From: Planctomycetota bacterium
GTDB lineage: Bacteria > Planctomycetota > Phycisphaerae > WQYP01
Direction of reading: 5' to 3'
Length of the DNA stretch: 64,000 bases
Assembly (NCBI GenBank): GCA_021819825.1
Contig: JAKAEZ010000006.1
Coordinates: forward strand, 37,332 to 101,331
The position numbers and the translations under genes are program-made. Within the stretch, counting starts at the first letter, position 1. Every line of letters starts with the position of its first letter. Shown one piece after another: positions 8,943-24,993 of the stretch. Below the pieces are notes generated by a model. That model was not told the origin of the DNA. It ran no database searches and saw only the letters and a list, made by a program, of their open reading frames with translations.

Positions 8943-11900
8943 ATGTCGTTGGATATCACATTTATCACGAATGAAAGCGGCAAAACGCTACGCGATCGAC
9001 TCGCGGCGTTGCTCGGTACCGACACGCGACAGTTTGACTGCCTGGTAGGCTATTTTTTCATCAGCGGATTTTATAAGATTTATCCGAGTCTGGAAAAAGT
9101 AGAAAGGGTTCGCATCCTTGTCGGTCTGAACACCGACCACACCGTTTGGAAGCTTTCGCAAAATGCCAAAGCGCCCTCGGATGAGCCTCCCGCCTTCCAT
9201 TTCCACTCCCACTCGGAGGTGCAGAAGGAAATTCCCCGCACCATGCTGCGAGAATTGGAACATGCCGCGTACACCGCCGAGGTCGAAACTGGCGTGGATA
9301 AGTTCGTACAATGGATCAAATCGGGAAAATTGGAAATCAGGGCGCATCCATCCCGGGATCTGCACGCGAAGGTCTACATCGTGACCTTTCGCGATGGGGA
9401 TAGGGATATTGGCCGCGTGATTACCGGCTCAAGCAACCTGACCCAATCCGGCCTGCAGGACAATCTTGAATTCAACGTCGAGCTGAAAAACCGCTCCGAT
9501 TACGATTTCGCCATCGACAAATTCAATGCACTCTGGACCGGTGCTGTGGAATTATCTGAACCCTGTAAACAGGCCATTTTGTCGCAGTCCCCGTACGCCC
9601 AGTTCACCCCTTATGAGCTTTATCTGAAGTTCCTTTACGAGTATTTCCGCAGTGAGCTGAACCGTCCGACGGAGCTTGACGACCTCTACGTCCCGGATGG
9701 GTTCAAAAAGCTCAAATATCAGGAAGAGGCCGTCCTGACGGCGAAAAGAATTCTTGAAGAATACGGCGGTGTGTTTCTTTCCGATGTCGTCGGGTTGGGA
9801 AAAACTTACATGGCCGCCATGCTTGCCCAGCAGCTTAAAGGCCCATCACTCGTGCTCGCTCCGCCTCATCTTATTGATGCCAAGAATCCCGGTTCATGGC
9901 GCAATGTGTTCCGCCAGTTCAACGTTCCGCAACACACAGATTTCGAATCCATCGGAACGCTGGATTCCCTGCTCCAGCGTGATATGTCCAAATACAGGAA
10001 CGTGTTTATTGATGAATCACATCGCTTCCGCAATGAGGATAATCAAACCTACGCCAATCTCGCGCAAATCTGCCGGGGAAAGCGCGTTATTTTGGTATCC
10101 GCCACCCCGCTTAACAACACTCCGGGTGACATTCTCAGCCAGATCAAGCTGTTTCAGAACGGCACCAACAGTACCATCCCCAATGTCCGGAATCTCGTGG
10201 AATTCTTTGGCAAATTGCAACGGAACCTCCGCGGTCTTGACCGCCGCACCCACCGAGAGCAGTATCTCCGCACCGTTCAGGCCAACGCCAAAACCACGCG
10301 GGAAAGCGTTCTTAAATATCTCATGATCCGCCGCACCCGTGGCGAGGTGGCAAGGTATTATGCCACCGACCTTGCGTTGCAGGGCGTGACATTTCCCGAT
10401 GTTGTGGACCCCAAAGCTCTTTTTTACAAGTTCAATAAGGAAGAAAGCCGAATCCTGGATTCCACTATGCAGATGCTGGGGCACGATTTCAAATATGCAC
10501 GCTACAAGCAGCTCGCCTACTACCTGGGCGAGCGCGAAGGGGGGCAATCTCAGGCCCAGCAGAACCTTGCGAAGTTCATGAAAATACTCATGGTCAAGCG
10601 CCTGGAAAGCAGTTTCCATGCTTTTCGTCTCACGCTGGACCGTTTCATTCGCACCTACCAGCGTGTTATTGCGGAATTCCGCAAGGGGAATGTTTACATC
10701 AGCAAGAAATATACCAGCAAAATTTTTGACCTGCTGGATGATGACGAACAGGAATCCATACAACAATTACTTGATGAAGACAAGGCGGAAATGCTCGACG
10801 CGAAGGAGTTCCGTCCTGAATTTATCGTCGATCTGGAAAGCGATCTGGCCATCCTGAATTCCATCCGCAGTCTCTGGAACAACATCAAACGCGATCCCAA
10901 GTGGGAGGCCTTCCGCCAACTCCTGCTTGATGATAAGCAGCTTAAGCAATCCAAGGTGATCATATTCACTGAATCAAGGGAAACCGCAGAGTATCTGGGC
11001 CGGCAGATCGCGGCCGGGGTGGAGAAAAGGGTCCTGGTTTCCAGCAGTGATTCCGATGAGGCCGTGTATCGGCAAGTCACGGACAATTTTGATGCCCGGG
11101 CACTGCACCGTAAGGATGACTTCCGTATTCTTGTGGCCACAGAGGTGCTTTCGGAGGGTGTTAACCTGCACCGTTCCAATGTCGTCATTAACTATGATAT
11201 TCCGTGGAACCCCACGCGCCTGATTCAGCGTGTGGGCCGCGTGAATCGGGTGGGCACAACTTTCGACACCATCCACACTTATAACTTTTTCCCGACGGAT
11301 GAAGGCAATGATCTTATCAAACTCAAAGAGGCCGCCGAGGCCAAAATCAACGCCTTCATTGAAATGCTTGGTAATGATGCCCGCCTGCTGACGGATGGCG
11401 AAGAAATTAAATCACACGATCTCTTTGATCGGTTAAATTCGAAAGCCACGATCACCGGTGAGGATGAGCAGGAAGAAACCGAACTCAAATACCTTGCCGA
11501 GATACGGGAAATCCGGGATAAGAACCCCGATTTGTTCATCCGCATCAAGGCGTTGCCTAAAAAGGCCCGCTCCACCCGGGCGGTGCCGGCACCAATTGGC
11601 ATCGCGCCAAAATTTGCGTTCCCCTCGTTGGTCACGTACTTTCGGCAGGGGCAATTGGACAAGTTCTTCATCGCCACGCCGTTGGGCATTTCTCAGGAGT
11701 TGGATTTCATGCGGACTGCGGCGCTTCTCAAGCCCGTTGACGCCAATGAGCCGCTGCTGAAAATTGCCGAGAACTTTTATGACCTGTTGGATAAAAACCG
11801 GGCCGAGTTCTTGGCCGCCACCAGCGCCGAGGCCTCCGGGGCCACCGCGAGACCCGGCGGCGGCGTCAACGCCGCCTACATTCTCAAGCGGTTGGCCGCC

Positions 11901-12173
11901 CGGGAAGTCCGAGATTACCATGGTTACACTGAAGAGGATGAACTCCTTATGCAACAGGTGATCCAGTGCCTCGCGGACGGGGCGATTCCCAGGGCCATCG
12001 CGAAGAAAGTTGCGGGCGCAATGAAGAAACAGGCCGATCCCCTGAAGGTACTGGCTATCCTGCGGCGCGATATTCCCCAAGCGCTGCTTTCGCCCATGCA
12101 GGCGGCGCAATCCCACGGAACGAACAGTCCGCGTGAAGTGATTCTCTCCTCCATGCTGTTGGAGGCACGATGA
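8943..12173 (+). CDS. PLD-like nuclease domain fused to SNF2-type helicase (defence-associated)
   Basis: HAKVYIV...ITGSSNLTQSGL (HKD-type), SDVVGLGKTYMAAMLAQQL (Walker A), VFIDESHRFRNE (DESH), GRVNRVGTTFDTIHTYNFFPTDEGN (helicase C). Confidence 0.9.
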   Translation: MSLDITFITNESGKTLRDRLAALLGTDTRQFDCLVGYFFISGFYKIYPSLEKVERVRILVGLNTDHTVWKLSQNAKAPSDEPPAFHFHSHSEVQKEIPRTMLRELEHAAYTAEVETGVDKFVQWIKSGKLEIRAHPSRDLHAKVYIVTFRDGDRDIGRVITGSSNLTQSGLQDNLEFNVELKNRSDYDFAIDKFNALWTGAVELSEPCKQAILSQSPYAQFTPYELYLKFLYEYFRSELNRPTELDDLYVPDGFKKLKYQEEAVLTAKRILEEYGGVFLSDVVGLGKTYMAAMLAQQLKGPSLVLAPPHLIDAKNPGSWRNVFRQFNVPQHTDFESIGTLDSLLQRDMSKYRNVFIDESHRFRNEDNQTYANLAQICRGKRVILVSATPLNNTPGDILSQIKLFQNGTNSTIPNVRNLVEFFGKLQRNLRGLDRRTHREQYLRTVQANAKTTRESVLKYLMIRRTRGEVARYYATDLALQGVTFPDVVDPKALFYKFNKEESRILDSTMQMLGHDFKYARYKQLAYYLGEREGGQSQAQQNLAKFMKILMVKRLESSFHAFRLTLDRFIRTYQRVIAEFRKGNVYISKKYTSKIFDLLDDDEQESIQQLLDEDKAEMLDAKEFRPEFIVDLESDLAILNSIRSLWNNIKRDPKWEAFRQLLLDDKQLKQSKVIIFTESRETAEYLGRQIAAGVEKRVLVSSSDSDEAVYRQVTDNFDARALHRKDDFRILVATEVLSEGVNLHRSNVVINYDIPWNPTRLIQRVGRVNRVGTTFDTIHTYNFFPTDEGNDLIKLKEAAEAKINAFIEMLGNDARLLTDGEEIKSHDLFDRLNSKATITGEDEQEETELKYLAEIREIRDKNPDLFIRIKALPKKARSTRAVPAPIGIAPKFAFPSLVTYFRQGQLDKFFIATPLGISQELDFMRTAALLKPVDANEPLLKIAENFYDLLDKNRAEFLAATSAEASGATARPGGGVNAAYILKRLAAREVRDYHGYTEEDELLMQQVIQCLADGAIPRAIAKKVAGAMKKQADPLKVLAILRRDIPQALLSPMQAAQSHGTNSPREVILSSMLLEAR

Positions 12174-12358
12174 ATCGGCATCAGGCCCGCAAACTCGGTA
12201 CGGTCTTCACCTGGGAATTGGAGGCAAGGCGACTTCTTGGATTTTTCGGCAAGCAGTTGAGCATGATGGGACAACCCAAGGAGTTCGTTCGCAACAGCCG
12301 ATACGTCGAAGACATGTTGGCGCTGCCTGTAAAGGGCGTGGAAGGAGAGGCATCTTGA
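12170..12358 (+). CDS. Small ORF, possible N-terminal remnant of a methyltransferase-like gene
   Basis: ATGA-coupled to the helicase; N-terminus MNRHQARKLG resembles MNRDQARQLV of the 13619 gene. Confidence 0.4.
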   Translation: MNRHQARKLGTVFTWELEARRLLGFFGKQLSMMGQPKEFVRNSRYVEDMLALPVKGVEGEAS

Positions 12359-13518
12359 TCAAGAAGCGCGGCCATTTAGCCAAATTACAACCCAGAATCG
12401 CCGACTATGATTCGATACTGACCGACGTTACCGGTCTCCTGGAATCCGCCCGGCGCGGTGCCGCACGGGCGGTTAATGCGACGATGACCACCGTTTATTG
12501 GCGCGTCGGAGAGCGAATCGTGGAATGGGAGCAAGGCGGGCGCAACCGTGCTGATTATGGTGTTGCACTTCTCAAGCGGCTGGCTGGCGACTTGAGAACC
12601 CGCTTTGGAACCGGATTTTCGGAGCGCAATCTCGAACAGATGCGACTGTTTTACCGCCAGTGGCCAATTTCGCAGACACCGTCTGCGAAATTGGCCACAA
12701 TGTCCGCCCCGCCCCCCTCTGCGCCCATTACTCAAATTGTGCAATCACCGTCTGCACAATTCGCCTCGCCACGGTTCCCGCTGGCCTGGTCTCATTATGT
12801 TCGGCTTCTTGCGGTGAAAAATGTCTTGGCAAGACAATTCTACGAAACCGAGGCCCTCCGTGGCGGATGGTCGATCCGGCAACTTGATCGGCAGATAGAT
12901 TCCCTTTATTACGAACGCACGGTCTTGTCAAAAAATAAGGCCGCCATGCTTACCAAAGGCCAAAAGCCAGCCTCCGGCGACTCTGTTACGCCCGAAGAAG
13001 AAATCAAAGACCCCTTTATTCTCGAATTCCTTGACCTCAAAGATGAATATTCCGAAACCCAATTGGAGGAGGCACTGATCCGCCATTTGGAATCGTTCCT
13101 TCTGGAACTTGGCGATGACTTCGCCTTCCTTGGCCGGCAACGGCGATTACGGATTGGTGACCAATGGTTTCGTGTGGACCTGTTATTCTTCCACCGCAGG
13201 CTAAAATGTCTGATCGTAATCGATCTCAAGACGGGAAAATTTACCCACGCCGACGCCGGCCAAATGCACCTATATCTCAATTACGCCGCAGACCATTGGA
13301 CCAAGCCCGGTGAGAATCCGCCTGTAGGACTGATACTCTGCGCACAAAAAGATGCGGCCGTTGTCCACTATGCACTGGAGAATCTGCCCAACAAAGTTCT
13401 CGCGGCTGAATACAAGATGAAATTACCTGATGAAGCCACCCTCGCTGGTGAAATAGATCGCACGCGCCGGGCGCTGGAAGTCAGATCGGTGGGCGGACGC
13501 GGGGGCAGGAAGAAATGA
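12355..13518 (+). CDS. DUF1016 / YhcG-like PDDEXK nuclease domain protein
   Basis: N-terminal MTTVYWRVGERIVEWEQGGRNRADYGVALLKRLAGDL and C-terminal FRVDLLFFHRRLKCLIVIDLKTGKFTHADAGQMHLYLNY, characteristic of the family. Confidence 0.92.
   Translation: MIKKRGHLAKLQPRIADYDSILTDVTGLLESARRGAARAVNATMTTVYWRVGERIVEWEQGGRNRADYGVALLKRLAGDLRTRFGTGFSERNLEQMRLFYRQWPISQTPSAKLATMSAPPPSAPITQIVQSPSAQFASPRFPLAWSHYVRLLAVKNVLARQFYETEALRGGWSIRQLDRQIDSLYYERTVLSKNKAAMLTKGQKPASGDSVTPEEEIKDPFILEFLDLKDEYSETQLEEALIRHLESFLLELGDDFAFLGRQRRLRIGDQWFRVDLLFFHRRLKCLIVIDLKTGKFTHADAGQMHLYLNYAADHWTKPGENPPVGLILCAQKDAAVVHYALENLPNKVLAAEYKMKLPDEATLAGEIDRTRRALEVRSVGGRGGRKK
12660..12698. repeat. Perfect 18-bp inverted repeat with 3-nt loop inside the DUF1016 gene
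   Basis: gtggccaatttcgcagac-acc-gtctgcgaaattggccac. Confidence 0.97.
12735..12761. repeat. Second, related inverted repeat (9-bp arms) in the DUF1016 gene
   Basis: aattgtgca-atcaccgtc-tgcacaatt; shares caccgtctgc with the first hairpin. Confidence 0.85.
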
Positions 13519-13622
13519 GTATACCACGAAATATTAGGCGCTACGTTGCGATCATCGCTGCGGCTCATACCGCAGGCCCGCGTGGGGCTATTCTTTCCCC
13601 CATGTTGTTGGAGGCACCATGA
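13515..13622 (+). pseudogene. 35-codon micro-ORF resembling the helicase C-terminus
   Basis: MSIPRNIRRYVAIIAAAHTAGPRGAILSPMLLEAP*; compare helicase tail AAQSHGTNSPREVILSSMLLEAR*; ATGA-coupled at both ends. Confidence 0.5.
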
Positions 13623-16600
13623 ATCGCGACCAGGCTAGGCAGCTTGTTAAGAACACATTCAAGCAGAAATTCGATAAGGGCCGATTCACCACTTTTATCG
13701 GAAACCTGCTCAACCATATCGATGTTTCCAACGCCACCTCCTGTAATTTCCGTCGTATAAAGGATGCGTATAAGCCGCATGTTGACCTCTCCCAGCGAAT
13801 TGGTACTTACACCTCCCCAGATAATCAGCTTTTGGATGTTTTGGTAGTCCGGCTCACAAGCCAAGCAAAACTAATCCGCACTCGTGCTGCAATTCGGAAT
13901 TTCGTGGCTGATTACCTCGCGGGGGAAGGTAAACATGCCGCCCTTGTCGCCTTTGTTTCCCCGTCTGAAAACGCCTGGCGATTTTCCTATGTGAAAATGG
14001 AATATGCCACAGTTGAAAAGTCATCCGGCGATGTCGGCGTGGAGGCCCGCCTGACCCCCGCCCGGCGGTTTTCTTATCTGGTCGGCCCCGGTGAAAGCTG
14101 TCATACGGCCCAAACCCGGTTTCTTGATCTGCTGCAAAATACGCAGACCAATCCGCAGTTGGAGGACATTGAAGAAGCCTTCAGCGTGGAGGCCGTTACC
14201 AAGGAATTCTTTGCGGGGTACAAGGATCTCGCCCTTGAGGTTAAGGAGGAACTGGACAGGCTGGCCGCGGGCGATAACGCCATCAGGGACGAATTTGCCG
14301 CCTGTCAGATCAGCACCATCGGCTTTGCCAAAAAACTCATGGGCCAAATTGTATTTCTTTACTTTCTCCAGAAAAAGGGCTGGCTCGGCGTGGCCAAAGA
14401 CGCCCCTTGGGGTACCGGCCCGCATAATTTCTTGCGCAAACTGGCCGATGGCGATTTTGGCCAACGCGCCAACTTTTTCGATGATATGCTGGAGCCGCTA
14501 TTTTATGGCACTCTGGCCAAGGATCGCGGCCATGAGGCCTTTTGCGAACGCTTTGATTGCCGCATCCCATTTCTCAATGGCGGCCTTTTTGAACCGCTCA
14601 ATAATTACAATTGGCGCAAAACCGAAATCCTGCTGCCCAACCGTCTGTTCACCAATGACGTTGCGGTGGAGGAAGGAATTACCGGCACCGGCATTTTAGA
14701 TGTTTTTGACCGTTACAACTTCACCGTCAATGAAGCCGAGCCGCTGGAAAAGGAAGTGGCCATTGATCCGGAAATGCTGGGCAAAGTGTTTGAGAACCTG
14801 CTGGAAGTCAAAGAGCGTAAATCCAAGGGATCGTTTTATACCCCGCGTGAAATTGTCCATTACATGTGCCAGGAAAGCCTGATTAACTATCTCGACACGG
14901 CGGTCAATGGTGAATGTGACACAGGCATTCCTGCCTGTACCCCATCAAAAACACCCAGCCAGGCACAAGAAACACAGACAGGAATGTCTGTGCTACCGCA
15001 ACCACAAACACAGACAGGAATGTCTGTGCCACGTTGTGACATTGAAACGTTCATCCACGAAGGGGACCGCATTGCGGATTACGACGCCGTTAAGGCCAAC
15101 CATGGCATTGAGTTGCCCGCCGCCATAAAAACCCACGCCCGGCTGTTGGATGACAAACTTGCCGCGATCACCGTGTGCGATCCGGCAATCGGATCAGGCG
15201 CGTTTCCGGTGGGCATGATGCAGGAAATCGTCCGCGCCCGCTCCGCACTGACACCCTATTGCAACGATGTGCATGATCGCACCGCCTACCACTTCAAACG
15301 CCACGCGATACAAAACTGTCTGTACGGTGTGGATATTGATCCCGGTGCCGTGGAGATCGCCAAATTGCGACTCTGGCTTTCACTGGTGGTGGATGAAGAG
15401 GATGTGCGGCAGATCAAGCCGCTGCCGAACTTGGATTACAGGGTCGTGGTTGGGAACTCCTTGCTGGGCTTTCTATTCAGGTCCGTGCGCGTACAGAAAA
15501 TCGAGGAACTCAAGGCCCGATTTTTTGGGGAGACTGACTACGACGCGAAAATGCGACTAAAGACGGAAATTGATGGCCAGCTTTCACAGGCCTTCGCCAA
15601 CTCGAAACGGAGCCTGGGCTACGAGGTAAACTTCGATTTTCAAACGGTATTCTCTGAGGTCTTCCGCGGGGGCGGTTTCGATGTCGTCATTGGCAACCCG
15701 CCCTATGTTAGCCATGAACACATCCGGGAAATGAAGACCGCGCTGCGGGAGGCCTCCGAGGTCTATAGCCCATTTGCTGACATTTATTGTTATTTCATCG
15801 AGAAGGCCGTCAGAGTCTTGGCCAAAAAAGGAGTCCTAGCATTTATAACGTCCAACTCCTATATTAAGGCGGACTACGGAGCAAAACTTCGCGAATATCT
15901 TGGCAAACATACAAATATCCTGCAATTGCTTAGCGTTGAGCGCTCGCAGATTTTCGATACGGCAATCGTCAACGTTGCGATCCTACTCGCGACAAAGGCG
16001 CAGCCGGTCGAAGGTGCAACCGCTTACGTAATTAACTCAGCGTGGAACTCAGCGTCTTTTCGGAGATTCGTTCGGGCCGCCGGCTTCGAGGTACCAAGGT
16101 CCGTATTCAATTCATGTACCTGGGCGCTCGCGCACGCCAATGTGCAAGAACTCCGCGCGAGGGTCGAGGCGAACGGAAAGGCTCTTATTTCGCTGGGGGC
16201 TAAGATTCGCTTGGGAATAGCCACCGGGCGTAACGACGCCTTCCTCCTTACCGCCGCAGCGAGGGACGCACTTTTGGACATGGACGGGAGAAATGGTGAT
16301 GTCATTGTCCCGGTCGTTCGTGGTCGCGACATCGAACGATACGGGAAAATTGAGCCGGGGACGTACTTAATTGCTGCGCGGAATGGAGTCAATATCAAAA
16401 GGGACTATCCGACGTTATATCGCCATTTCGAATCCTTCGGCGCTAGCTTTCGGTCGCGCGGAGCGCAGGGGCAGGAGTGGTGGAACCTGCGGGCCTGCAG
16501 CTTCTACGACGATTTCGATTGCGAGAGAATTGTCTGGATCGAACTGAGCAATGAGGCTCGGTTTACCAGGTGCCCGGCGGGAGTGTGGTGCCTTAACAGT

Positions 16601-16936
16601 GCATACTTCATGTTGCCGCCGCTGGGGTTTTCTCTCAGCTACATTCTCGGAGTGCTGAATTCCCGGTTGATAAAGTTCTATTTCAATCTGATCGCACAGA
16701 CAAGCGGCATGGGCGTTACTCGTTGGATAAACGTTTACGTTGAGAAATTCCCGATTCCCACCGCGCCGTCGGAGGAGCAGGGAGCAGTGGAGCGGCTGGT
16801 TGACCGCATTTTAGCGGCTAAGGAAGAAATGGTCTCTCCGGACACCAGCTCGCTGGAACGCGAGATCGACCAGCTTGTCTACCAACTTTACAACCTGACG
16901 CCGGAAGAAATTGCGATTGTTGAGGGGGCGGGGTAG
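13619..16936 (+). CDS. Eco57I-type class I SAM-dependent DNA methyltransferase (type IIG-like)
   Basis: KGSFYTPREIVHYM, VCDPAIGSGAFPVGMMQEI (motif I), DVVIGNPPYVSHEHI (NPPY motif IV), C-terminal TRD-like region. Confidence 0.93.
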   Translation: MNRDQARQLVKNTFKQKFDKGRFTTFIGNLLNHIDVSNATSCNFRRIKDAYKPHVDLSQRIGTYTSPDNQLLDVLVVRLTSQAKLIRTRAAIRNFVADYLAGEGKHAALVAFVSPSENAWRFSYVKMEYATVEKSSGDVGVEARLTPARRFSYLVGPGESCHTAQTRFLDLLQNTQTNPQLEDIEEAFSVEAVTKEFFAGYKDLALEVKEELDRLAAGDNAIRDEFAACQISTIGFAKKLMGQIVFLYFLQKKGWLGVAKDAPWGTGPHNFLRKLADGDFGQRANFFDDMLEPLFYGTLAKDRGHEAFCERFDCRIPFLNGGLFEPLNNYNWRKTEILLPNRLFTNDVAVEEGITGTGILDVFDRYNFTVNEAEPLEKEVAIDPEMLGKVFENLLEVKERKSKGSFYTPREIVHYMCQESLINYLDTAVNGECDTGIPACTPSKTPSQAQETQTGMSVLPQPQTQTGMSVPRCDIETFIHEGDRIADYDAVKANHGIELPAAIKTHARLLDDKLAAITVCDPAIGSGAFPVGMMQEIVRARSALTPYCNDVHDRTAYHFKRHAIQNCLYGVDIDPGAVEIAKLRLWLSLVVDEEDVRQIKPLPNLDYRVVVGNSLLGFLFRSVRVQKIEELKARFFGETDYDAKMRLKTEIDGQLSQAFANSKRSLGYEVNFDFQTVFSEVFRGGGFDVVIGNPPYVSHEHIREMKTALREASEVYSPFADIYCYFIEKAVRVLAKKGVLAFITSNSYIKADYGAKLREYLGKHTNILQLLSVERSQIFDTAIVNVAILLATKAQPVEGATAYVINSAWNSASFRRFVRAAGFEVPRSVFNSCTWALAHANVQELRARVEANGKALISLGAKIRLGIATGRNDAFLLTAAARDALLDMDGRNGDVIVPVVRGRDIERYGKIEPGTYLIAARNGVNIKRDYPTLYRHFESFGASFRSRGAQGQEWWNLRACSFYDDFDCERIVWIELSNEARFTRCPAGVWCLNSAYFMLPPLGFSLSYILGVLNSRLIKFYFNLIAQTSGMGVTRWINVYVEKFPIPTAPSEEQGAVERLVDRILAAKEEMVSPDTSSLEREIDQLVYQLYNLTPEEIAIVEGAG
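14921..15028. repeat. Three short palindromic repeats inserted in-frame in the methyltransferase gene
   Basis: acaggca-ttcc-tgcctgt (14921-14938); cacagaca-ggaa-tgtctgtg (14973-14992 and 15009-15028). Confidence 0.95.
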
Positions 16937-17177: not shown

Positions 17178-18248
17178 ATGCAATGCGTATTAGAGCCAAC
17201 CTCCAAACCAGCAGAGGACCGCAGGATTGGTGCCTTATGGATGCGGTCTATCAGGTTTGCGGGATTGGCGAGGGTACTTCATCTGTTCGGTGGACGCCAC
17301 GCCGAATTCAAAGCTAAAGATCTTAATTATCGCATCATCGAAACGGGGGCGTACCAGACTGAGCGTCGCACTCAGCCGTCAACGACCACGCTTTACCATT
17401 GTCGGAACACACTCCTGCAGATCGGGGCACTAACCAAGGCGGATGGTCATTATCGCCTGGCACAGAGGCCCGAAATTGAAACGATTCTCTCGAACACCGA
17501 ACCCAGCACGGAGAAGCTCAACTGGGAGGCTTGCAACGCATTTGCAGACTTGGTACTGCAGAATACGGATTGCCAGACCGCGTTTTTCTCCCTTTTCAGC
17601 CGACAAGGGTGGCTACGCAGTGCCGCCGATTTCCGAGAGGGTGCGATTCCCGTATCTTGGCGGTCCACGCAGGCTCAGGGTAGTCGTGACCGCTTAGGAG
17701 TAATCCTCGAATCGGAGGGAAGCGGTGAACACCGCTCCCTAGCGACCAAACGCGTGACTATTGGCGGTAACCGGAGCCAAGATATCTGCAGCATACTTTA
17801 CGGCGTGCGGTACTGGGCGAGGGACGAACTTCGCCTGGTCGATGAGTATTTTAGCCTTGGCCGAGGCTCGGTCATGTTCCCCATCCGGGCGGAGAACACG
17901 GAGGCCGCTACGGTAGTGGTAATGGATAGGATAATCAAGTCCGTCGCAGAAGATAGGGCTTGGACAAGATTTTCGCTGCAGGATATGATCAGCCGCTACT
18001 GTGTTGGGGAGCGGTACGCACTCGCGGCATTGCATTTGGCAATAAAAAAACTTGTCGCATCCGCACCCGGCAAGGTAGTGCTGATTCCCTCGGCGGAGTC
18101 GTTTGCCGCGAATACGCTCTCGGCCACATTTCCGGGAACACGGGCACACGAGTTGGGAAGCTATTACAGGGATGGCTCCGGTAGGTTGATCTCCCACATA
18201 CGATTGCATGTTTCAATTGCAAGGATGAATTATGCCCAGTCCGCTTGA
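17178..18248 (+). CDS. Uncharacterised protein with a possible winged-helix segment, first gene of a 4-gene cassette
   Basis: 356 codons; TTTLYHCRNTLLQIGALTKADGHYRLA looks wHTH-like; overlaps next gene by 17 bp. Confidence 0.75.
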   Translation: MQCVLEPTSKPAEDRRIGALWMRSIRFAGLARVLHLFGGRHAEFKAKDLNYRIIETGAYQTERRTQPSTTTLYHCRNTLLQIGALTKADGHYRLAQRPEIETILSNTEPSTEKLNWEACNAFADLVLQNTDCQTAFFSLFSRQGWLRSAADFREGAIPVSWRSTQAQGSRDRLGVILESEGSGEHRSLATKRVTIGGNRSQDICSILYGVRYWARDELRLVDEYFSLGRGSVMFPIRAENTEAATVVVMDRIIKSVAEDRAWTRFSLQDMISRYCVGERYALAALHLAIKKLVASAPGKVVLIPSAESFAANTLSATFPGTRAHELGSYYRDGSGRLISHIRLHVSIARMNYAQSA

Positions 18249-19389
18249 GCGCCTTCAACTAAAGTTCAATCCCTTCGAGCCGTCCGGAAGCGGCGCTCCG
18301 GCTTCAGAGAAGGAGCCGTGGCTTCCGGAAAGGTGGAAGCAGAAGCTTAAGAAATATTTCGAGCAATTGGGTGTGGGGGAGGGGATCAGGCCCCTTGCCG
18401 TGGTTGGGGAGTACGGCAGCGGGAAAAGTTATCTGTTGCATTGGTTGGATCAACATGAGTTCCCGCGTCGGCGCGTGCAGAGCTATTACTTTAATGACCC
18501 CGGCGTGCAGTTCTACGACTTGGCAAACCAATTTTTGCGGCGCCTTGGACGAAAGCACTTTTCCAAACTGGTGTGGGAGCTTGCGCAGCCACATGTCATG
18601 CACAGGCAACTTACTCTCTTTACCGGGACCTACGAAGACTTTCTGGGATCGTTTAGACAAAAGGATAGGCCCAAGCTAGAGCAGCAGATCCAGGCGGCGC
18701 TCATTGCAGCCAAGGTAACAACGGATGAAGAGATAGCCAGTCGCCTTGCCCAGATTGTTATGGATACCCCTAACAAGCCGTATTTTGAGTACCGCGATTT
18801 TGTTCCCGGCACGGCGCGATCGGTCGTCGCGGAGCATCAAGGGGCCAACTACTTCGGTGCATTGCTCCGAACGTTGCGATTGGCCGCGGGCGTGGAGAAG
18901 GTAGCGTTCTTGATAGACGAGTTCGAGGAGATTTCTCTTCACCGTAATATCACCGCCGCTGCATCCCAAGACTACCGCGTCACTCTGAAGAGGCTTATTG
19001 ATCTGACAGATGCGGGCGAACTTTGGCTCGTGTTATCGCTGACGCACGATGGAGCAGAAAAGACCAAACAGCTCGACCAAGCATTATGGAGTCGAATGTT
19101 CGAGTTCACAGTCGACCCGCTCGAGGATGATGAGGCTTACGATTTGGTCAAGAACCGTTTGGCCGATGCACGTCCGGACGAGTTAAAGCCGAAGCACGAT
19201 CTATTCCCCTTCGATCCAGGCTTCATGGCAGATCTTCGGCCGGTCACGAGATCCATTCCCCGATCCATCGTTAAGGTGTGTTCTGCCGCAATAAGCCAGG
19301 CCGCGAGCCGGAACAAAAAATCTATAAGTAACGTGGACGTGCTAGCCGTGGAGGAGAATCTCTTCCCGGTAAGTGGTGGAGAAAGATAA
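18232..19389 (+). CDS. AAA/P-loop ATPase
   Basis: Walker A VVGEYGSGKSYLLHWL, Walker B VAFLIDEFEEI; N-terminal LQLKFNPFEPSGSG typical of Orc/ExeA-like ATPases. Confidence 0.85.
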   Translation: MPSPLERLQLKFNPFEPSGSGAPASEKEPWLPERWKQKLKKYFEQLGVGEGIRPLAVVGEYGSGKSYLLHWLDQHEFPRRRVQSYYFNDPGVQFYDLANQFLRRLGRKHFSKLVWELAQPHVMHRQLTLFTGTYEDFLGSFRQKDRPKLEQQIQAALIAAKVTTDEEIASRLAQIVMDTPNKPYFEYRDFVPGTARSVVAEHQGANYFGALLRTLRLAAGVEKVAFLIDEFEEISLHRNITAAASQDYRVTLKRLIDLTDAGELWLVLSLTHDGAEKTKQLDQALWSRMFEFTVDPLEDDEAYDLVKNRLADARPDELKPKHDLFPFDPGFMADLRPVTRSIPRSIVKVCSAAISQAASRNKKSISNVDVLAVEENLFPVSGGER

Positions 19390-20216
19390 TGAAGCCGGAT
19401 GAGACTGGAAGGACGCCCCCGCAACCGACCGCGCCATCACCGATCCTTTTTTTGGACACAAATGGAATCCACTACGCGCGGCTTGCATTGTCGCTCGCGA
19501 GAACGCAACACCGAAAAATTCTGAAGATGGATAATGATGAGTTCAAGGCCGCGATCAAGCGGGCCAGGGTCTGGAAGGGATCGGAAAAACCCTACATGGA
19601 CGGTTTTGCCATTGGTCACTATTTAGCAAAGCGCGTCGACGAGAGTGATGCCCGCGTTCAATACGCACCTGTCAGCGGGTTTGAGTTGCTATGCGGAGGC
19701 CTACGCGGCAGGGCCATCGTAAATGCTGCCAGAGGTAGGGTACCCAATCGGTGGTACAGCCGGTTGGACGAGGCCGAGTTGCTGCACTACCTCAACCCTG
19801 GCGACTTCGCTAAAAACGATTCCGACCGCATGGGCATATCCGATCTCTTTCAGGGCCAACTTGGCTTCACCGTCGGCGAGGCGGATGAGCGCGACATCGG
19901 GAGGGTCTTCGACTTGTCAAAATCCATATTAAAAGCCACGTTTCTCGAGATTGGCGACTGTTTGGTATACGCTAGTTCAATGCTCGCGCGAGCCGAGGCG
20001 GTAATTACCTGCGACTCGCACTTGGCAAACGTGATCCGCTCGGTGGAGAACCCGGGATCAAATCCAGAGCTTGCCAAGCAGTTTAACCGCGCGAGCAAGA
20101 TCATCCGCGAATGCGTGGCAGCGATATTAGAGGTTCAGGCATCACAGGTGTCGCTACCAAAAGCGCTGAAGATCAAGGATATGACGCAAAAAAAATCCCA
20201 AAGAGGTGCCGGGTGA
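19389..20216 (+). CDS. PIN-like domain protein (putative nuclease)
   Basis: Spaced acidic motifs FLDTNGIHYARL / SGFELL / IGDCLVYASSMLARAEAVITCDSHL as in PIN domains; starts at last base of ATPase stop codon. Confidence 0.65.
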   Translation: MKPDETGRTPPQPTAPSPILFLDTNGIHYARLALSLARTQHRKILKMDNDEFKAAIKRARVWKGSEKPYMDGFAIGHYLAKRVDESDARVQYAPVSGFELLCGGLRGRAIVNAARGRVPNRWYSRLDEAELLHYLNPGDFAKNDSDRMGISDLFQGQLGFTVGEADERDIGRVFDLSKSILKATFLEIGDCLVYASSMLARAEAVITCDSHLANVIRSVENPGSNPELAKQFNRASKIIRECVAAILEVQASQVSLPKALKIKDMTQKKSQRGAG

Positions 20217-21487
20217 TCGAGAATCGGAAAGAATGGAGCGCATGGGTTACGCCGCGCGCACTGCGATCAGAACCAATCCACCGCTGGTACACGTTCCCGC
20301 ATAGTTTCACGCACCAATTGGTCGATGCCTTGGCAGAGGAGTGGGGGCTTGGGGGCCACGACCTTATTTTGGACCCTTTTGTCGGGGCTGGAACGACCGT
20401 CCTCGCGGCGAAGCTCGGTGGTATTCCCGCCGTAGGGCACGATCTTTCTCCGCTTGCCGTGTTCGTGAGCCGTGTTAAATCAACCCATTACAGCCTACCG
20501 GAAGTGCAGAAGGCATGGAACGGGCTTCTGCCGCGGCTTGTGCCGGGCAACTGGGATATGCCGCAGGGAGCGTATCCCCAGCTAGTAATCCGCGCACTTC
20601 CGTCGAAATTGCTGGGTGCATTCGAAGGGATCAGCAGCGGGATCGGCAGGATGCGTTGCCCGGAGGCGACAAAAGATCTTTTTCGGCTGGCTCTCCTCGC
20701 GACCATACCTGATTTTAGCCAGGCCGTTGCAACCGGCGGCTGGCTTTCTTGGGTTGGGAAGCGGCGTACCAAGGCGGAACTCGTTCCGGCATTCAGGCTA
20801 CGGATGCAGAAAATACTGGAGGACATCCGCGAGTCGCCAGCACCTTGCAATGGAAACTGGCCTGTTTCATGCGCTGACGCCCGGAAACTTCCGGAGGCTG
20901 ACTCGACGGTCAGTGCGGTGATTACGTCACCCCCGTACCCAAACCGGCATGATTACACGCGCGTTTTCGGGGTCGAGTTGATGTATGGCTTTTTGGATTG
21001 GGAGCGAACTCGAGATCTCCGCCGCCAGAGTTTTCAATCCCACCCCGAATCGCGGCCGGACCGGCCAACTTCAACTGAGTACTTCCCGCCACCGCGCCTT
21101 ATAAAACTTCTCCGCGAGCTGAAGGAAGCTGGCGTTGAGGAAAAAATTACGGGGATGATCAGCGGCTATTTTCTGGACATATTCTTATGTCTCCGCGAAC
21201 TCCGACGGGTCTGCAAGCCGAACGCTCCGATAGCCCTAGTCCTGGGTAATGCCCGTTACGCCGGAGTTCCGGTGATCGTTGACGAGCTGACGGCAACAAT
21301 TGGGGAGCAGGCGGGCTTACGTTGCGAACGCATCAGAGCAGTCCGATTTCGAGGAAACAGCGCCCAACAAATGGGGGCCTATGGGAGATCGCCGTCCCGT
21401 GAGAGCGTCATCATTTTCCGGAACGGCAAAGATAGGGTCACAAATCGGGAAGGTAATCCGTCGTATCGCCGCTCGGGCCGGGAATGA
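20213..21487 (+). CDS. Amino-group DNA methyltransferase (N4C/N6A, N6_N4_Mtase-like)
   Basis: GTG 20213 after AAAGAGG, GTGA overlap with PIN gene; DLILDPFVGAGTTVLAAKLGGIPAVGHDLSP (motif I), ITSPPYPNRHDYTRVFGVE (motif IV). Confidence 0.88.
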   Translation: MIENRKEWSAWVTPRALRSEPIHRWYTFPHSFTHQLVDALAEEWGLGGHDLILDPFVGAGTTVLAAKLGGIPAVGHDLSPLAVFVSRVKSTHYSLPEVQKAWNGLLPRLVPGNWDMPQGAYPQLVIRALPSKLLGAFEGISSGIGRMRCPEATKDLFRLALLATIPDFSQAVATGGWLSWVGKRRTKAELVPAFRLRMQKILEDIRESPAPCNGNWPVSCADARKLPEADSTVSAVITSPPYPNRHDYTRVFGVELMYGFLDWERTRDLRRQSFQSHPESRPDRPTSTEYFPPPRLIKLLRELKEAGVEEKITGMISGYFLDIFLCLRELRRVCKPNAPIALVLGNARYAGVPVIVDELTATIGEQAGLRCERIRAVRFRGNSAQQMGAYGRSPSRESVIIFRNGKDRVTNREGNPSYRRSGRE

Positions 21488-21770: not shown

Positions 21771-21844
21771 GCTTAATGGGCGGCGGCGGGGTGGCGGATA
21801 CCACGGGTACTTGCTTCCTGTTGCCTATTGCGCTAGGATGTGTC

Positions 21845-21865
21845 ATATACCCCATGGGGGTATAT
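21845..21865. promoter_or_regulatory. Putative CsoR-type copper operator
   Basis: atatacccc-atg-ggggtatat, perfect 9-bp arms, immediately upstream of the CsoR-family gene; matches the known TACCC...GGGGTA operator style. Confidence 0.75.
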
Positions 21866-21884
21866 AAGACGGAGTAGCGCTTCT

Positions 21885-22286
21885 ATGCCTAAGAATGTGA
21901 AAAGCCGAAACTTAGAACCCAGGCCGGCCGAACAACATGGCCGTTCTCCTGGCCCGGCTGACCGGCCTCTACCGAAATTGCGGCGGTTTGGCCCCGGAGG
22001 GAACGCTTTCGCGGTGGATGCGGATAAGAAGAGGGCCAACCTCCATCGCCTCAAAAGAATTGAAGGCCAAATTCGCGGTGTGCATGAGATGGTGCAACAG
22101 GACCGGTACTGCGCGGATATTCTTATTCAGATTGCCGCCGCGCAAAAGTCTCTTTCGGGTGTCGCACGGCAATTGCTGGCTAATCATCTCAAGCATTGTG
22201 TTGCGCATGAGATTCGGGCCGGCGGGGCGCAGGCTGATGCCGCCTGCGAGGAACTTGTGAAACTCATATCTCATCTGGACCATTAA
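21885..22286 (+). CDS. CsoR/FrmR family metal-sensing repressor
   Basis: [55 protein letters not shown]. Confidence 0.92.
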
Positions 22287-22302
22287 GCGGAAGAAGGAAA
22301 CT

Positions 22303-24993
22303 ATGAATACCGTGAATATAACAACTGATACATCATTGCAGGGCAGCCAGACGCTTGACCCAGTCTGTGGCATGAAGATAACGCCCGAAAAGGCGGCAGC
22401 GCACCGTGAGCATGGCGGCCAGACCTATTATTTCTGTGGTAAAAGCTGCCTGGAGAAATTCCTGCTTCACCCGGAGCAATACGTGAAAGCAAGCGTTGTC
22501 GCTCAGACGGCGATTGATCCAGTCTGCGGCATGAATGTTGCGCGGGAAACTGCGCGGGGGAAATGGGAGCATCGGGGTGTTACCTATTATTTCTGTTGCA
22601 AAGGGTGTTTAGAAAAATTCCAGAGCGATCCGGAAAAATATCTCAATAAGCAGCCATTAAAGCCAGGGGGTGGCGGCCTGGTGCAACTGGGAGTTTCCGC
22701 AAAAACGATGAGGACAACGCCCGCCGCCGCGTTGACCGCTGGTCCGGCAGCGCCGCTTGGGGCCGCAAATCACCAATACATCTGTCCGATGGATCCGGAA
22801 ATTCACAGTGATAAACCGGGAGCGTGCCCCAAGTGCGGCATGGCCCTGGAACTTGATTTGTCATCGCCGCCTGCCCGCAAGGCAATGCGTTATACCTGCC
22901 CGATGGATCCGGAAATTATCCGTACTGAACCGGGCGCGTGCCCCAAGTGCGGTATGGCCTTGGAGCCAATGGAAGTTCAATCGGCTGGCGAACCGGAGAA
23001 TCCGGAATTAGTGGATATGTCCCGGCGTTTCCGCATTGGCCTGGCACTGGCGGTGCCGGTGTTTATATTATCCATGCTGGCAGATTTAAAAATTGCCCAT
23101 CTCAACACGTCGGCGTGGGTAAACTGGGTCAACCTTCTCTTATCTACACCGGTGGTGTTCTGGTGCGGCATGCCCTTTTTTGTGCGGGCGTGGGCTTCGA
23201 TTAAAACCTGGCATCTCAACATGTTTACGCTGATCGGGTTAGGCGTGGGCGTGGCGTATGTGTACAGCTTTGTTGCCACGCTGGTGCCGCAAATTTTTCC
23301 CCCGGCATTTCAGGTTCATCCCGGCCTGGTGGCGACATACTTTGAAGCTGCCGCCGTGATTGTCGTGCTGGTGTTGCTGGGGCAAATGCTGGAGTTGCGG
23401 GCACGCGGCAAAACCGGCGCGGCCATCCGGGAATTATTGGATTTATCGCCCAAAAGTGCCCGGCGTATTGCCGCCGACGGCAATCAACAGGATGTGCCGC
23501 TGGAACAGATTGCCGTGGGGGATAAACTCCAAGTGCGCCCCGGGGAAAGACTCCCCGTTGATGGAATCGTGCTGGAAGGTTCCAGTACCGTCGATGAATC
23601 CATGATTTCCGGGGAACCCATTCCTGTGCTCAAGGCGACGGGGGACAAAGTCATTGGGGGCACGGTGAATGGCACCGGCGGCCTGGTGATGGAGGCGCAA
23701 AAAGTCGGGGCCGATACGCTGTTAGCGCAAATTGTGGCGTTGGTTTCCCAGGCACAGCGCAGCCGTGCGCCGATTCAACGTCTGGCTGATAAAGTTGCCG
23801 GAATTTTTGTGCCCGCGGTGGTAGGCTCGGCAATTCTGACGTTTATTTTATGGTCCCTATTTGGCCCCGCTCCGGCGATGGCCTATGCGCTGGTAAATGC
23901 GGTGGCGGTGGTGATGATCGCCTGCCCCTGCGCCCTGGGGTTGGCCACACCGATGTCCATCATGGTGGGTGTTGGCCGGGCGGCCCAATCGGGCGTGCTG
24001 ATAAAAAACGCGGAAGTTCTTGAAGTCATGGAAAAAATTGACACCATCGCACTGGATAAAACCGGTACGTTGACACAGGGCCATCCGAAGGTGGTAACAC
24101 TTCAGCCGCAGCCGGGCGTTTCCGCTGATGATTTGCTTCAATTGGCCGCTTCGTTGGAGCGTGGCAGCGAGCATCCGCTGGCGGCAGCCATTGTTTCCGC
24201 GGCCCAAACCCGGGGCATGCCGCTATTGCCGGTTGAGGAATTTCAATCCACCAGCGGACAGGGTGTCTGTGGCAAAATCAAGGGGCAGAATGTGGCCATC
24301 GGCAATGCGGCACTGATGCAGCAACTGCGGATTCCCATTGAATCCGTGTCACAACAAGAGGAAGTTCTGCGCAGCACCGGTCAAACAATTATGTATGTGG
24401 CGGCGGAGGGAAATTTTATGGGTCTCTTGGGTACGCAAGATCCGCTGCGTCCCGGTGCCGCGGAAATGGTTAAGCGTATAAAGTCTCTGGGCCTGTCTGT
24501 GGTTATGATCACCGGTGATAACGAGGCCACGGCCAAGGCCGTTGCCCGTCGCGTGGGTATTGACGCGGTCGAAGCGAATACTTTACCGCAGCAAAAAGCC
24601 GAGGCGGTGCGCCGCCTGCAAAGTCAGGGACGAAAAGTGGCTCTGGCGGGCGACGGCATTAATGACGCGCCCGCCCTGGCGCAGGCGGATGTGGGTATTG
24701 CCATGGGTACCGGTACGGATGTCGCAATCGCCAGTGCCGGTGTGACATTACTGCACGGAGATTTAGCCGGCATACTCCAGGCGCGACACATAAGCATCGC
24801 GACGATGCGGAATATCCGGCAGAATCTTTTATGGGCATTTGGTTACAACATTCTGGGAATACCGGTTGCCGCGGGTATTTTGTATCCATTTTTCGGCATT
24901 CTTCTAAGCCCCATGATCGCCGCGGCAGCGATGAGCTTCAGTAGCGTATCGGTTATTGCCAATTCTCTGCGGCTGCGAAAACTGAAACTGTAG
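22303..24993 (+). CDS. copA: Copper-translocating P1B-type ATPase with 2 YHS and 2 heavy-metal-binding (YxCPMDPE) domains
   Basis: DPVCGM...YYFC x2, YICPMDPEI...CPKCGMALE x2, [36 protein letters not shown]. Confidence 0.95.

What the first reader, a model, noticed from the sequence alone, without database searches (positions are those of the whole stretch)
17178..21487. Candidate undescribed 4-gene system: unknown/wH-like + AAA ATPase + PIN-like + DNA methyltransferase
Seen: four same-strand genes with overlapping stops and starts (18232/18248, 19389/19389, 20213/20216), so they are probably translated as one unit. Motifs: P-loop GEYGSGKS with FLIDEFEEI; PIN-like acidic quartet; DPFVGAGTT plus TSPPY methyltransferase. 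Inference: the methyltransferase marks self DNA, the PIN-like protein is an RNA or DNA effector, and the ATPase is a motor or sensor with the 356-aa protein as adaptor or regulator. I recognise no BREX (PglZ/BrxC), DISARM (DUF1998), Dnd or type I-III R-M composition here. It sits immediately downstream of another methyltransferase system, as expected in a defence island.
Basis: partly seen in the sequence, partly recalled or inferred. Interest (0 to 1): 0.85.

Follow-up and report, generated by a model that had tools for sequence, protein, structure and literature searches.

The report
Methylase–ATPase–PIN nuclease defence operon
Four overlapping bacterial genes encode a DNA-marking enzyme, an ATP-driven switch, a DNA-binding adaptor and a nuclease; they are inherited together across distant bacteria and archaea and look like an unnamed immune system that tells own DNA from foreign DNA.

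Summary
In detail: four intact, overlapping same-strand genes. P1 has winged-helix ends, the second gene is a BrxC/BrxD-type AAA+ ATPase, the third a PIN nuclease with an invariant acidic quartet, the fourth a TSPPY DNA methyltransferase. One scan of about 85,000 species genomes with the ATPase found 16 loci. Every intact locus with enough sequence on both sides keeps all four families, in several bacterial phyla and archaea; a distant subtype (MT–P1'–ATPase–PIN') occurs in Bacteroidota and one more genome. A second bait, P1, found two archaeal loci, also with all four genes. The order P1–ATPase–PIN is fixed; the MTase sits before or after. Identity matrices of the four families correlate at r = 0.84–0.97. 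Some members add NurA plus a HerA-like ATPase, or a truncated BrxL, and many lie beside restriction–modification genes. PglZ, the BREX hallmark, is never linked. P1 and PIN match no PADLOC, Pfam or NCBIfam family above threshold; no held paper I read describes the set. Best reading: a rare, uncatalogued, BREX/Ssp-like modification-linked defence system in which the MTase marks self, P1 plus the ATPase senses unmarked DNA, and PIN is the effector. Defence activity and PIN substrate are inferred.

The parts
17178..18248 (+). P1: 356-aa adaptor with winged-helix-like ends around a central alpha+beta part; conserved WMR, YHxR, FFxxF, GxRxW and C-terminal SHIR motifs
   Evidence: ORF; family of 11 sequences; AF2 model; winged-helix-containing matches in Foldseek, none significant over the whole chain; no Pfam/PADLOC family
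18232..19389 (+). AAA+ ATPase (385 aa), BrxC/BrxD-like; Walker A GEYGSGKS, Walker B FLIDEFEE, conserved PR near the C-terminus
   Evidence: ORF; AAA_22 3.5e-7; 16-sequence alignment; relatives in L020 and L049 exceed the Pfam BrxC_BrxD cut-off
19389..20216 (+). PIN-domain nuclease (275 aa), acidic quartet D23/E99/D190/D209
   Evidence: ORF; invariant in 13/13 sequences; AF2 pLDDT 90; nearest folds VapC/FitB
20213..21487 (+). DNA methyltransferase (424 aa from GTG at 20213), motif I DPFVGAGTT before motif IV TSPPY; amino-methyltransferase, probably N4-cytosine by motif
   Evidence: PF01555 2.3e-8; PADLOC MTase_II PDLC03224 5.7e-57; alignment; GTGA junction
13619..16936 (+). Neighbour, not part of the set: type IIG restriction enzyme-methyltransferase
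   Evidence: PDLC03596 1.6e-297

Best explanation
A four-gene, modification-linked anti-invader system. Shown: the four families form one heritable unit. Inferred: (1) the MTase, guided or assisted by P1 and the ATPase, methylates a site in host DNA; (2) P1 (winged helices) and the BrxD/SspC-like AAA+ ATPase assemble on DNA and read its modification state or an invasion intermediate; (3) on unmodified DNA, ATP turnover releases or recruits the PIN nuclease, which stops the invader by cutting RNA (translation shutdown, abortive type; somewhat favoured because its fold is nearest VapC) or by cutting the DNA itself; (4) some lineages add DNA-degrading or BREX parts (NurA plus a HerA-like ATPase, BrxL).
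For: All four families occur together in every intact locus with enough flanking sequence, from two baits. Identity matrices of all family pairs correlate at r = 0.84-0.97. Catalytic residues of ATPase, PIN and MTase are invariant. Genes overlap or nearly abut in most members. Neighbours are restriction-modification genes: IIG in the window, Eco57I/N6-methylase type in L024, IIG in L049, type I hsdM/hsdS and hsdR on either side in L027, a TdeIII enzyme in L034. Added modules: a NurA-domain protein plus a HerA-like ATPase and BrxL. Haloarchaeal plasmids pair a homologous ATPase (hhalign E 2e-31) and a small protein with an HTH-like N-terminus with a tRNA-guanine transglycosylase, which suggests that the ATPase module works with interchangeable modification enzymes. 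Ssp systems pair an Orc/Cdc6 ATPase with a triple-wHTH SspB (PMC10853773). In the decayed locus L031 PIN and MTase are lost together.
Against: No phage, methylome or biochemical data. The system is rare; no P1, PIN or ATPase relative of the window type was found in plasmid records and none of the ATPase in phage records. That P1 discriminates modified DNA is an analogy; its fold has no significant full-length match. The PIN substrate is unknown, and in subtype B the PIN gene matches subtype A only through its LDTN motif, acidic residues and position, not by profile.
Confidence: 0.62

Rival explanations
1. Restriction by DNA cleavage: PIN acts as a DNase and P1 plus ATPase is a loader or motor, so the set is an unusual ATP-dependent restriction-modification system with PIN in place of a PD-(D/E)XK nuclease.
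For: MTase always present; linkage to DNA-processing NurA/HerA; location next to or inside R-M operons.
Against: The nearest solved folds are VapC/FitB toxins, and VapC is best known as an RNase (PMC13092281); the ATPase is a small BrxD-type protein, not an SF2 translocase.
Confidence: 0.25
2. Toxin-antitoxin-like or addiction module: PIN is a toxin held in check by P1/ATPase, and the MTase controls expression or self-immunity.
For: VapC-like fold; PIN and MTase are lost together in the decayed L031 locus.
Against: No small VapB-like antitoxin; a conserved ATPase and a DNA methyltransferase are unusual for such modules; repeated restriction-modification neighbourhood.
Confidence: 0.12
3. A divergent BREX system.
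For: ATPase relatives exceed the BrxC_BrxD cut-off; BrxL in L049.
Against: PglZ not found in the own genome and not linked to the locus in 15 other genomes; MTase is not a BrxX/PglX type; PIN is constant.
Confidence: 0.05
4. A housekeeping or epigenetic-regulation operon unrelated to defence.
For: No experiment shows defence.
Against: Sporadic spread (1 of 393 genomes of the phylum with P1; 2 of 295 with the ATPase in another phylum), domain-crossing spread and R-M neighbours are typical of defence genes.
Confidence: 0.08

Closest known systems
SspBCD(E) phosphorothioate systems
   Same: An Orc/Cdc6-type ATPase (SspC) with a winged-helix protein (SspB) and a DNA-modifying enzyme (PMC10853773); the window ATPase weakly hits the SspC model (9.5e-4)
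   Different: Methyltransferase instead of the PAPS-reductase-type enzyme SspD; PIN nuclease instead of SspE; P1 shows no detectable sequence kinship to a named family
BREX (types 1-6) and BREX-related systems
   Same: BrxC/BrxD-type ATPase, a methyltransferase, and a truncated BrxL beside one archaeal member
   Different: No linked PglZ; no DUF499 ATPase hit, the core of the BREX-related systems (PMC12839542); different MTase; constant PIN
Haloarchaeal TGT-wH-ATPase plasmid loci (L057-L060)
   Same: Homologous ATPase directly after a small protein with an HTH-like N-terminus and a nucleic-acid modifying enzyme
   Different: Modifier is a transglycosylase; no PIN seen; middle protein not detectably related to P1
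AvaI/BsoBI-type R-M methyltransferases
   Same: One plasmid relative of the MTase sits beside an AvaI/BsoBI-family endonuclease, another beside a type II endonuclease
   Different: Here no type II endonuclease; three other genes replace it

Membership tests
BREX | PglZ (BrxZ) in the locus | tested here: not met
   PF08665 absent from the own genome, which is 68% complete; in the 15 other genomes searched, PglZ hits occur in 6 (5 above cut-off) but not at the locus
BREX | BrxC/D-type ATPase | tested here: met
   PF10923 above cut-off for L020 and L049 members; below cut-off for the window copy
BREX | BrxX/PglX-type methyltransferase | tested here: not met
   Window MTase hits PDLC03224 type II; PglX not among the 25 best PADLOC matches shown
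DUF499-centred BREX-related systems | DUF499 ATPase | tested here: not met
   No DUF499 hit for the ATPase in Pfam
Ssp phosphorothioation | PAPS-reductase-type enzyme SspD | tested here: not met
   None of the four window proteins or the tested upstream neighbours matches one
PIN-domain nucleases | PIN fold with acidic quartet | tested here: met
   D23/E99/D190/D209 invariant; VapC-like fold, Foldseek probability 1.00 but E = 0.017
Type II restriction-modification | Cognate restriction endonuclease | tested here: inconclusive
   No known REase family in the four genes; whether PIN cuts DNA is untested
Anti-phage defence system | Protection against phage | not testable with these tools
   Needs an experiment

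The most novel reading that the evidence does not exclude
A new class of modification-gated immunity: a BrxD/SspC-like ATPase and a winged-helix adaptor read the absence of a DNA methyl mark and respond by releasing a PIN ribonuclease, so self/non-self discrimination on DNA is turned into RNA cleavage; the same sensing module is re-used with other DNA modifiers such as transglycosylases.
Probability: 0.33. Interest if true: 0.88.

Novelty: new variant of a known kind. Interest (0 to 1): 0.74.

Why it matters
It would add a compact, domain-crossing member to the modification-linked defence systems, one that lacks the BREX nuclease/phosphatase PglZ and uses a PIN nuclease instead. It suggests a general plan, in which one winged-helix plus ATPase sensing module is combined with interchangeable DNA modifiers (methyl, transglycosylase, phosphorothioate) and interchangeable effectors. 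With four small genes, the open question of how BREX- and Ssp-like ATPases couple DNA modification to restriction could be tested directly in vitro.

Tried and rejected
Plasmid and phage records: no P1, PIN or ATPase relatives of the window type in plasmids and none of the ATPase in phages. The MTase-only hits in plasmids that were opened sit beside type II endonucleases, other methylases, or an unrelated McrBC-like set in Cryobacterium. Two viral-contig scans with single window proteins found nothing; later viral scans failed for technical reasons. Whole-protein Foldseek for P1 gave no significant match, so an SspB/BrxA-type triple winged helix could not be confirmed. Promoter and terminator scans are at chance level. 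P1 profiles of subtypes A and B align only weakly, and the PIN profiles do not align beyond the LDTN motif; kinship there rests on the ATPase and MTase and on gene position.

Full report
OBSERVATION. The window is part of contig 39 of a 2.49-Mb, 68%-complete draft genome. Sequence at the junctions shows a 17-nt overlap (P1/ATPase), TAATG (ATPase/PIN) and GTGA (PIN/MTase). Homologues start near the GTG at 20213, so the MTase is 424 aa rather than the 458-aa longest ORF. Upstream lie a PLD-SNF2 helicase, a DUF1016/YhcG nuclease and a type IIG enzyme. Downstream lie a metal-sensitive repressor and a copper-type P-ATPase (by sequence), neither related to defence.

FAMILIES. P1 and PIN match no PADLOC, Pfam or NCBIfam family above threshold. 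The window ATPase passes AAA_22, and its relatives in L020 and L049 exceed the BrxC_BrxD cut-off. The MTase is a PF01555/type II methyltransferase with TSPPY. By established motif knowledge (not tested here) S/T-PPY points to N4-cytosine, and motif I preceding motif IV by about 180 residues suggests that the target-recognition region lies between them.

CO-CONSERVATION. A distant ATPase relative in the same phylum (L020, 21% identity) led to an MTase-P1'-ATPase-PIN' locus next to a 1334-aa ORF that carries methylase motifs. A scan of about 85,000 species genomes with the two-ATPase profile returned 16 loci. ORF maps and profile searches show three arrangements. P1-ATPase-PIN-MTase: window, Planctomycetota L022, Ardenticatenaceae L023, Nitrospira L027/L029, Latescibacterota L028, Vicinamibacterales L030, Thermoflexus L034, and Kapaibacterium L024/L025 with two extra genes. 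MTase-P1-ATPase-PIN in archaeal L032/L033 (the L033 MTase is split). Subtype B, MTase-P1'-ATPase-PIN', in Prevotella L036, Bacteroides graminisolvens L037 and L020. L026 and L035 are cut by contig ends. L031 is a decayed relative of L028: it shares flanks, keeps the ATPase at 85% identity, has P1 debris and lacks PIN and MTase. To avoid bait bias, P1 was used as bait in the class of L033: two further archaeal genomes hit, and both carry MTase-P1-ATPase-PIN. In sampled phyla P1 and PIN profiles found nothing beyond the genome already known. Pairwise identity matrices of the four families across 15 loci correlate at r = 0.90-0.97 (0.84-0.96 within subtype A), with no permutation in 5000 reaching the observed values. 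The permutation test does not correct for shared species history.

ACTIVE SITES AND FOLDS. The PIN acids D23, E99, D190 and D209 are invariant in all 13 subtype-A sequences, and subtype B keeps D16, E55, D144 and D169. The AlphaFold2 PIN model (pLDDT 90) is nearest to VapC and FitB: probability 1.00 for VapC, but E = 0.017 and TM-score about 0.55 to the target. The P1 model (pLDDT 81) shows what reads as a winged helix at each end; Foldseek found winged-helix-containing structures such as the CUL1 WHB entry and PadR, but none significant over the full chain.

CONTEXT. Two Kapaibacterium genomes insert a NurA-domain protein (PF09376) and a HerA-like ATPase (PADLOC HerA 7e-10) between PIN and MTase. 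One archaeal locus is followed by a split, shortened BrxL (5e-27 and 2.5e-110) and preceded by a IIG enzyme. In L027 the four genes lie between hsdM/hsdS and hsdR, and L034 has a TdeIII endonuclease nearby. Subtype-B ATPase relatives on haloarchaeal plasmids follow a tRNA-guanine transglycosylase and a roughly 293-aa protein; the ATPases align over the full length (hhalign E 2e-31), while the middle protein is not detectably related to P1 but has an HTH-like N-terminus by eye.

MECHANISM. Published comparative work proposes that Orc/Cdc6-type ATPases with triple-winged-helix partners scan DNA and hand over to a modifier or a nuclease in Ssp systems (PMC10853773), and lists endoRNases including PIN as backup effectors around BREX (PMC12839542). 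Catalytic PIN domains are essential in two recently validated phage-defence systems (PMC13092281). By analogy the MTase marks self, P1 plus ATPase senses unmarked DNA, and PIN executes. Shown here: unit inheritance, intact catalytic residues, defence-rich surroundings. Inferred: every functional step.

MEMBERSHIP AND NOVELTY. BREX membership fails on PglZ and on the MTase type; Ssp membership fails on the modifying enzyme. No held paper found in seven searches describes the set, but bioRxiv and most subscription journals are not held, and the PADLOC copy dates from 2023, so a later description cannot be excluded. I therefore call it a new variant of a known kind: a modification-linked, BREX/Ssp-like defence system with a PIN effector.

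Noticed in passing
window 8943-16936: Three-gene set directly upstream: PLD-SNF2 helicase (best PADLOC hit C3a139 HKD+Snf2), DUF1016/YhcG nuclease (PDC-S02) and a type IIG restriction-methylase; it looks like a separate defence cluster.
   Followed up: partly
L024 and L025, 9904-12845: Kapaibacterium members carry a NurA-domain protein and a HerA-like ATPase with an unusual Walker A (GLATKTS) inserted between PIN and MTase; L026 begins a homologue of the first.
   Followed up: partly
L049:10452-11885: A split and shortened BrxL directly follows the PIN gene of an archaeal member, although no PglZ was found in that genome.
   Followed up: partly
L031:3867-5372: Natural decay of the locus: ATPase intact, P1 broken, PIN and MTase gone, same flanks as L028.
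   Followed up: yes
L057-L060: Haloarchaeal plasmids encode transglycosylase, small HTH-like protein and BrxD-like ATPase in a row, some near queuosine-type genes, EVE-domain or restriction genes: possible 7-deazaguanine analogue of this system.
   Followed up: partly
L004:6956-13190: Cryobacterium plasmid operon with two methyltransferases, a hypothetical protein, an McrB-like AAA ATPase and an McrC-like nuclease (by eye); unrelated by sequence.
   Followed up: no
L032:3744-6443 and L034:6744-8909: A second, large methylase-like gene follows the four-gene set; the L032 one begins with a DUF1156-like sequence, by eye.
   Followed up: no
window 21840-24993: Metal-sensitive repressor plus copper-type P-ATPase immediately downstream; the defence region ends at 21487.
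   Followed up: no
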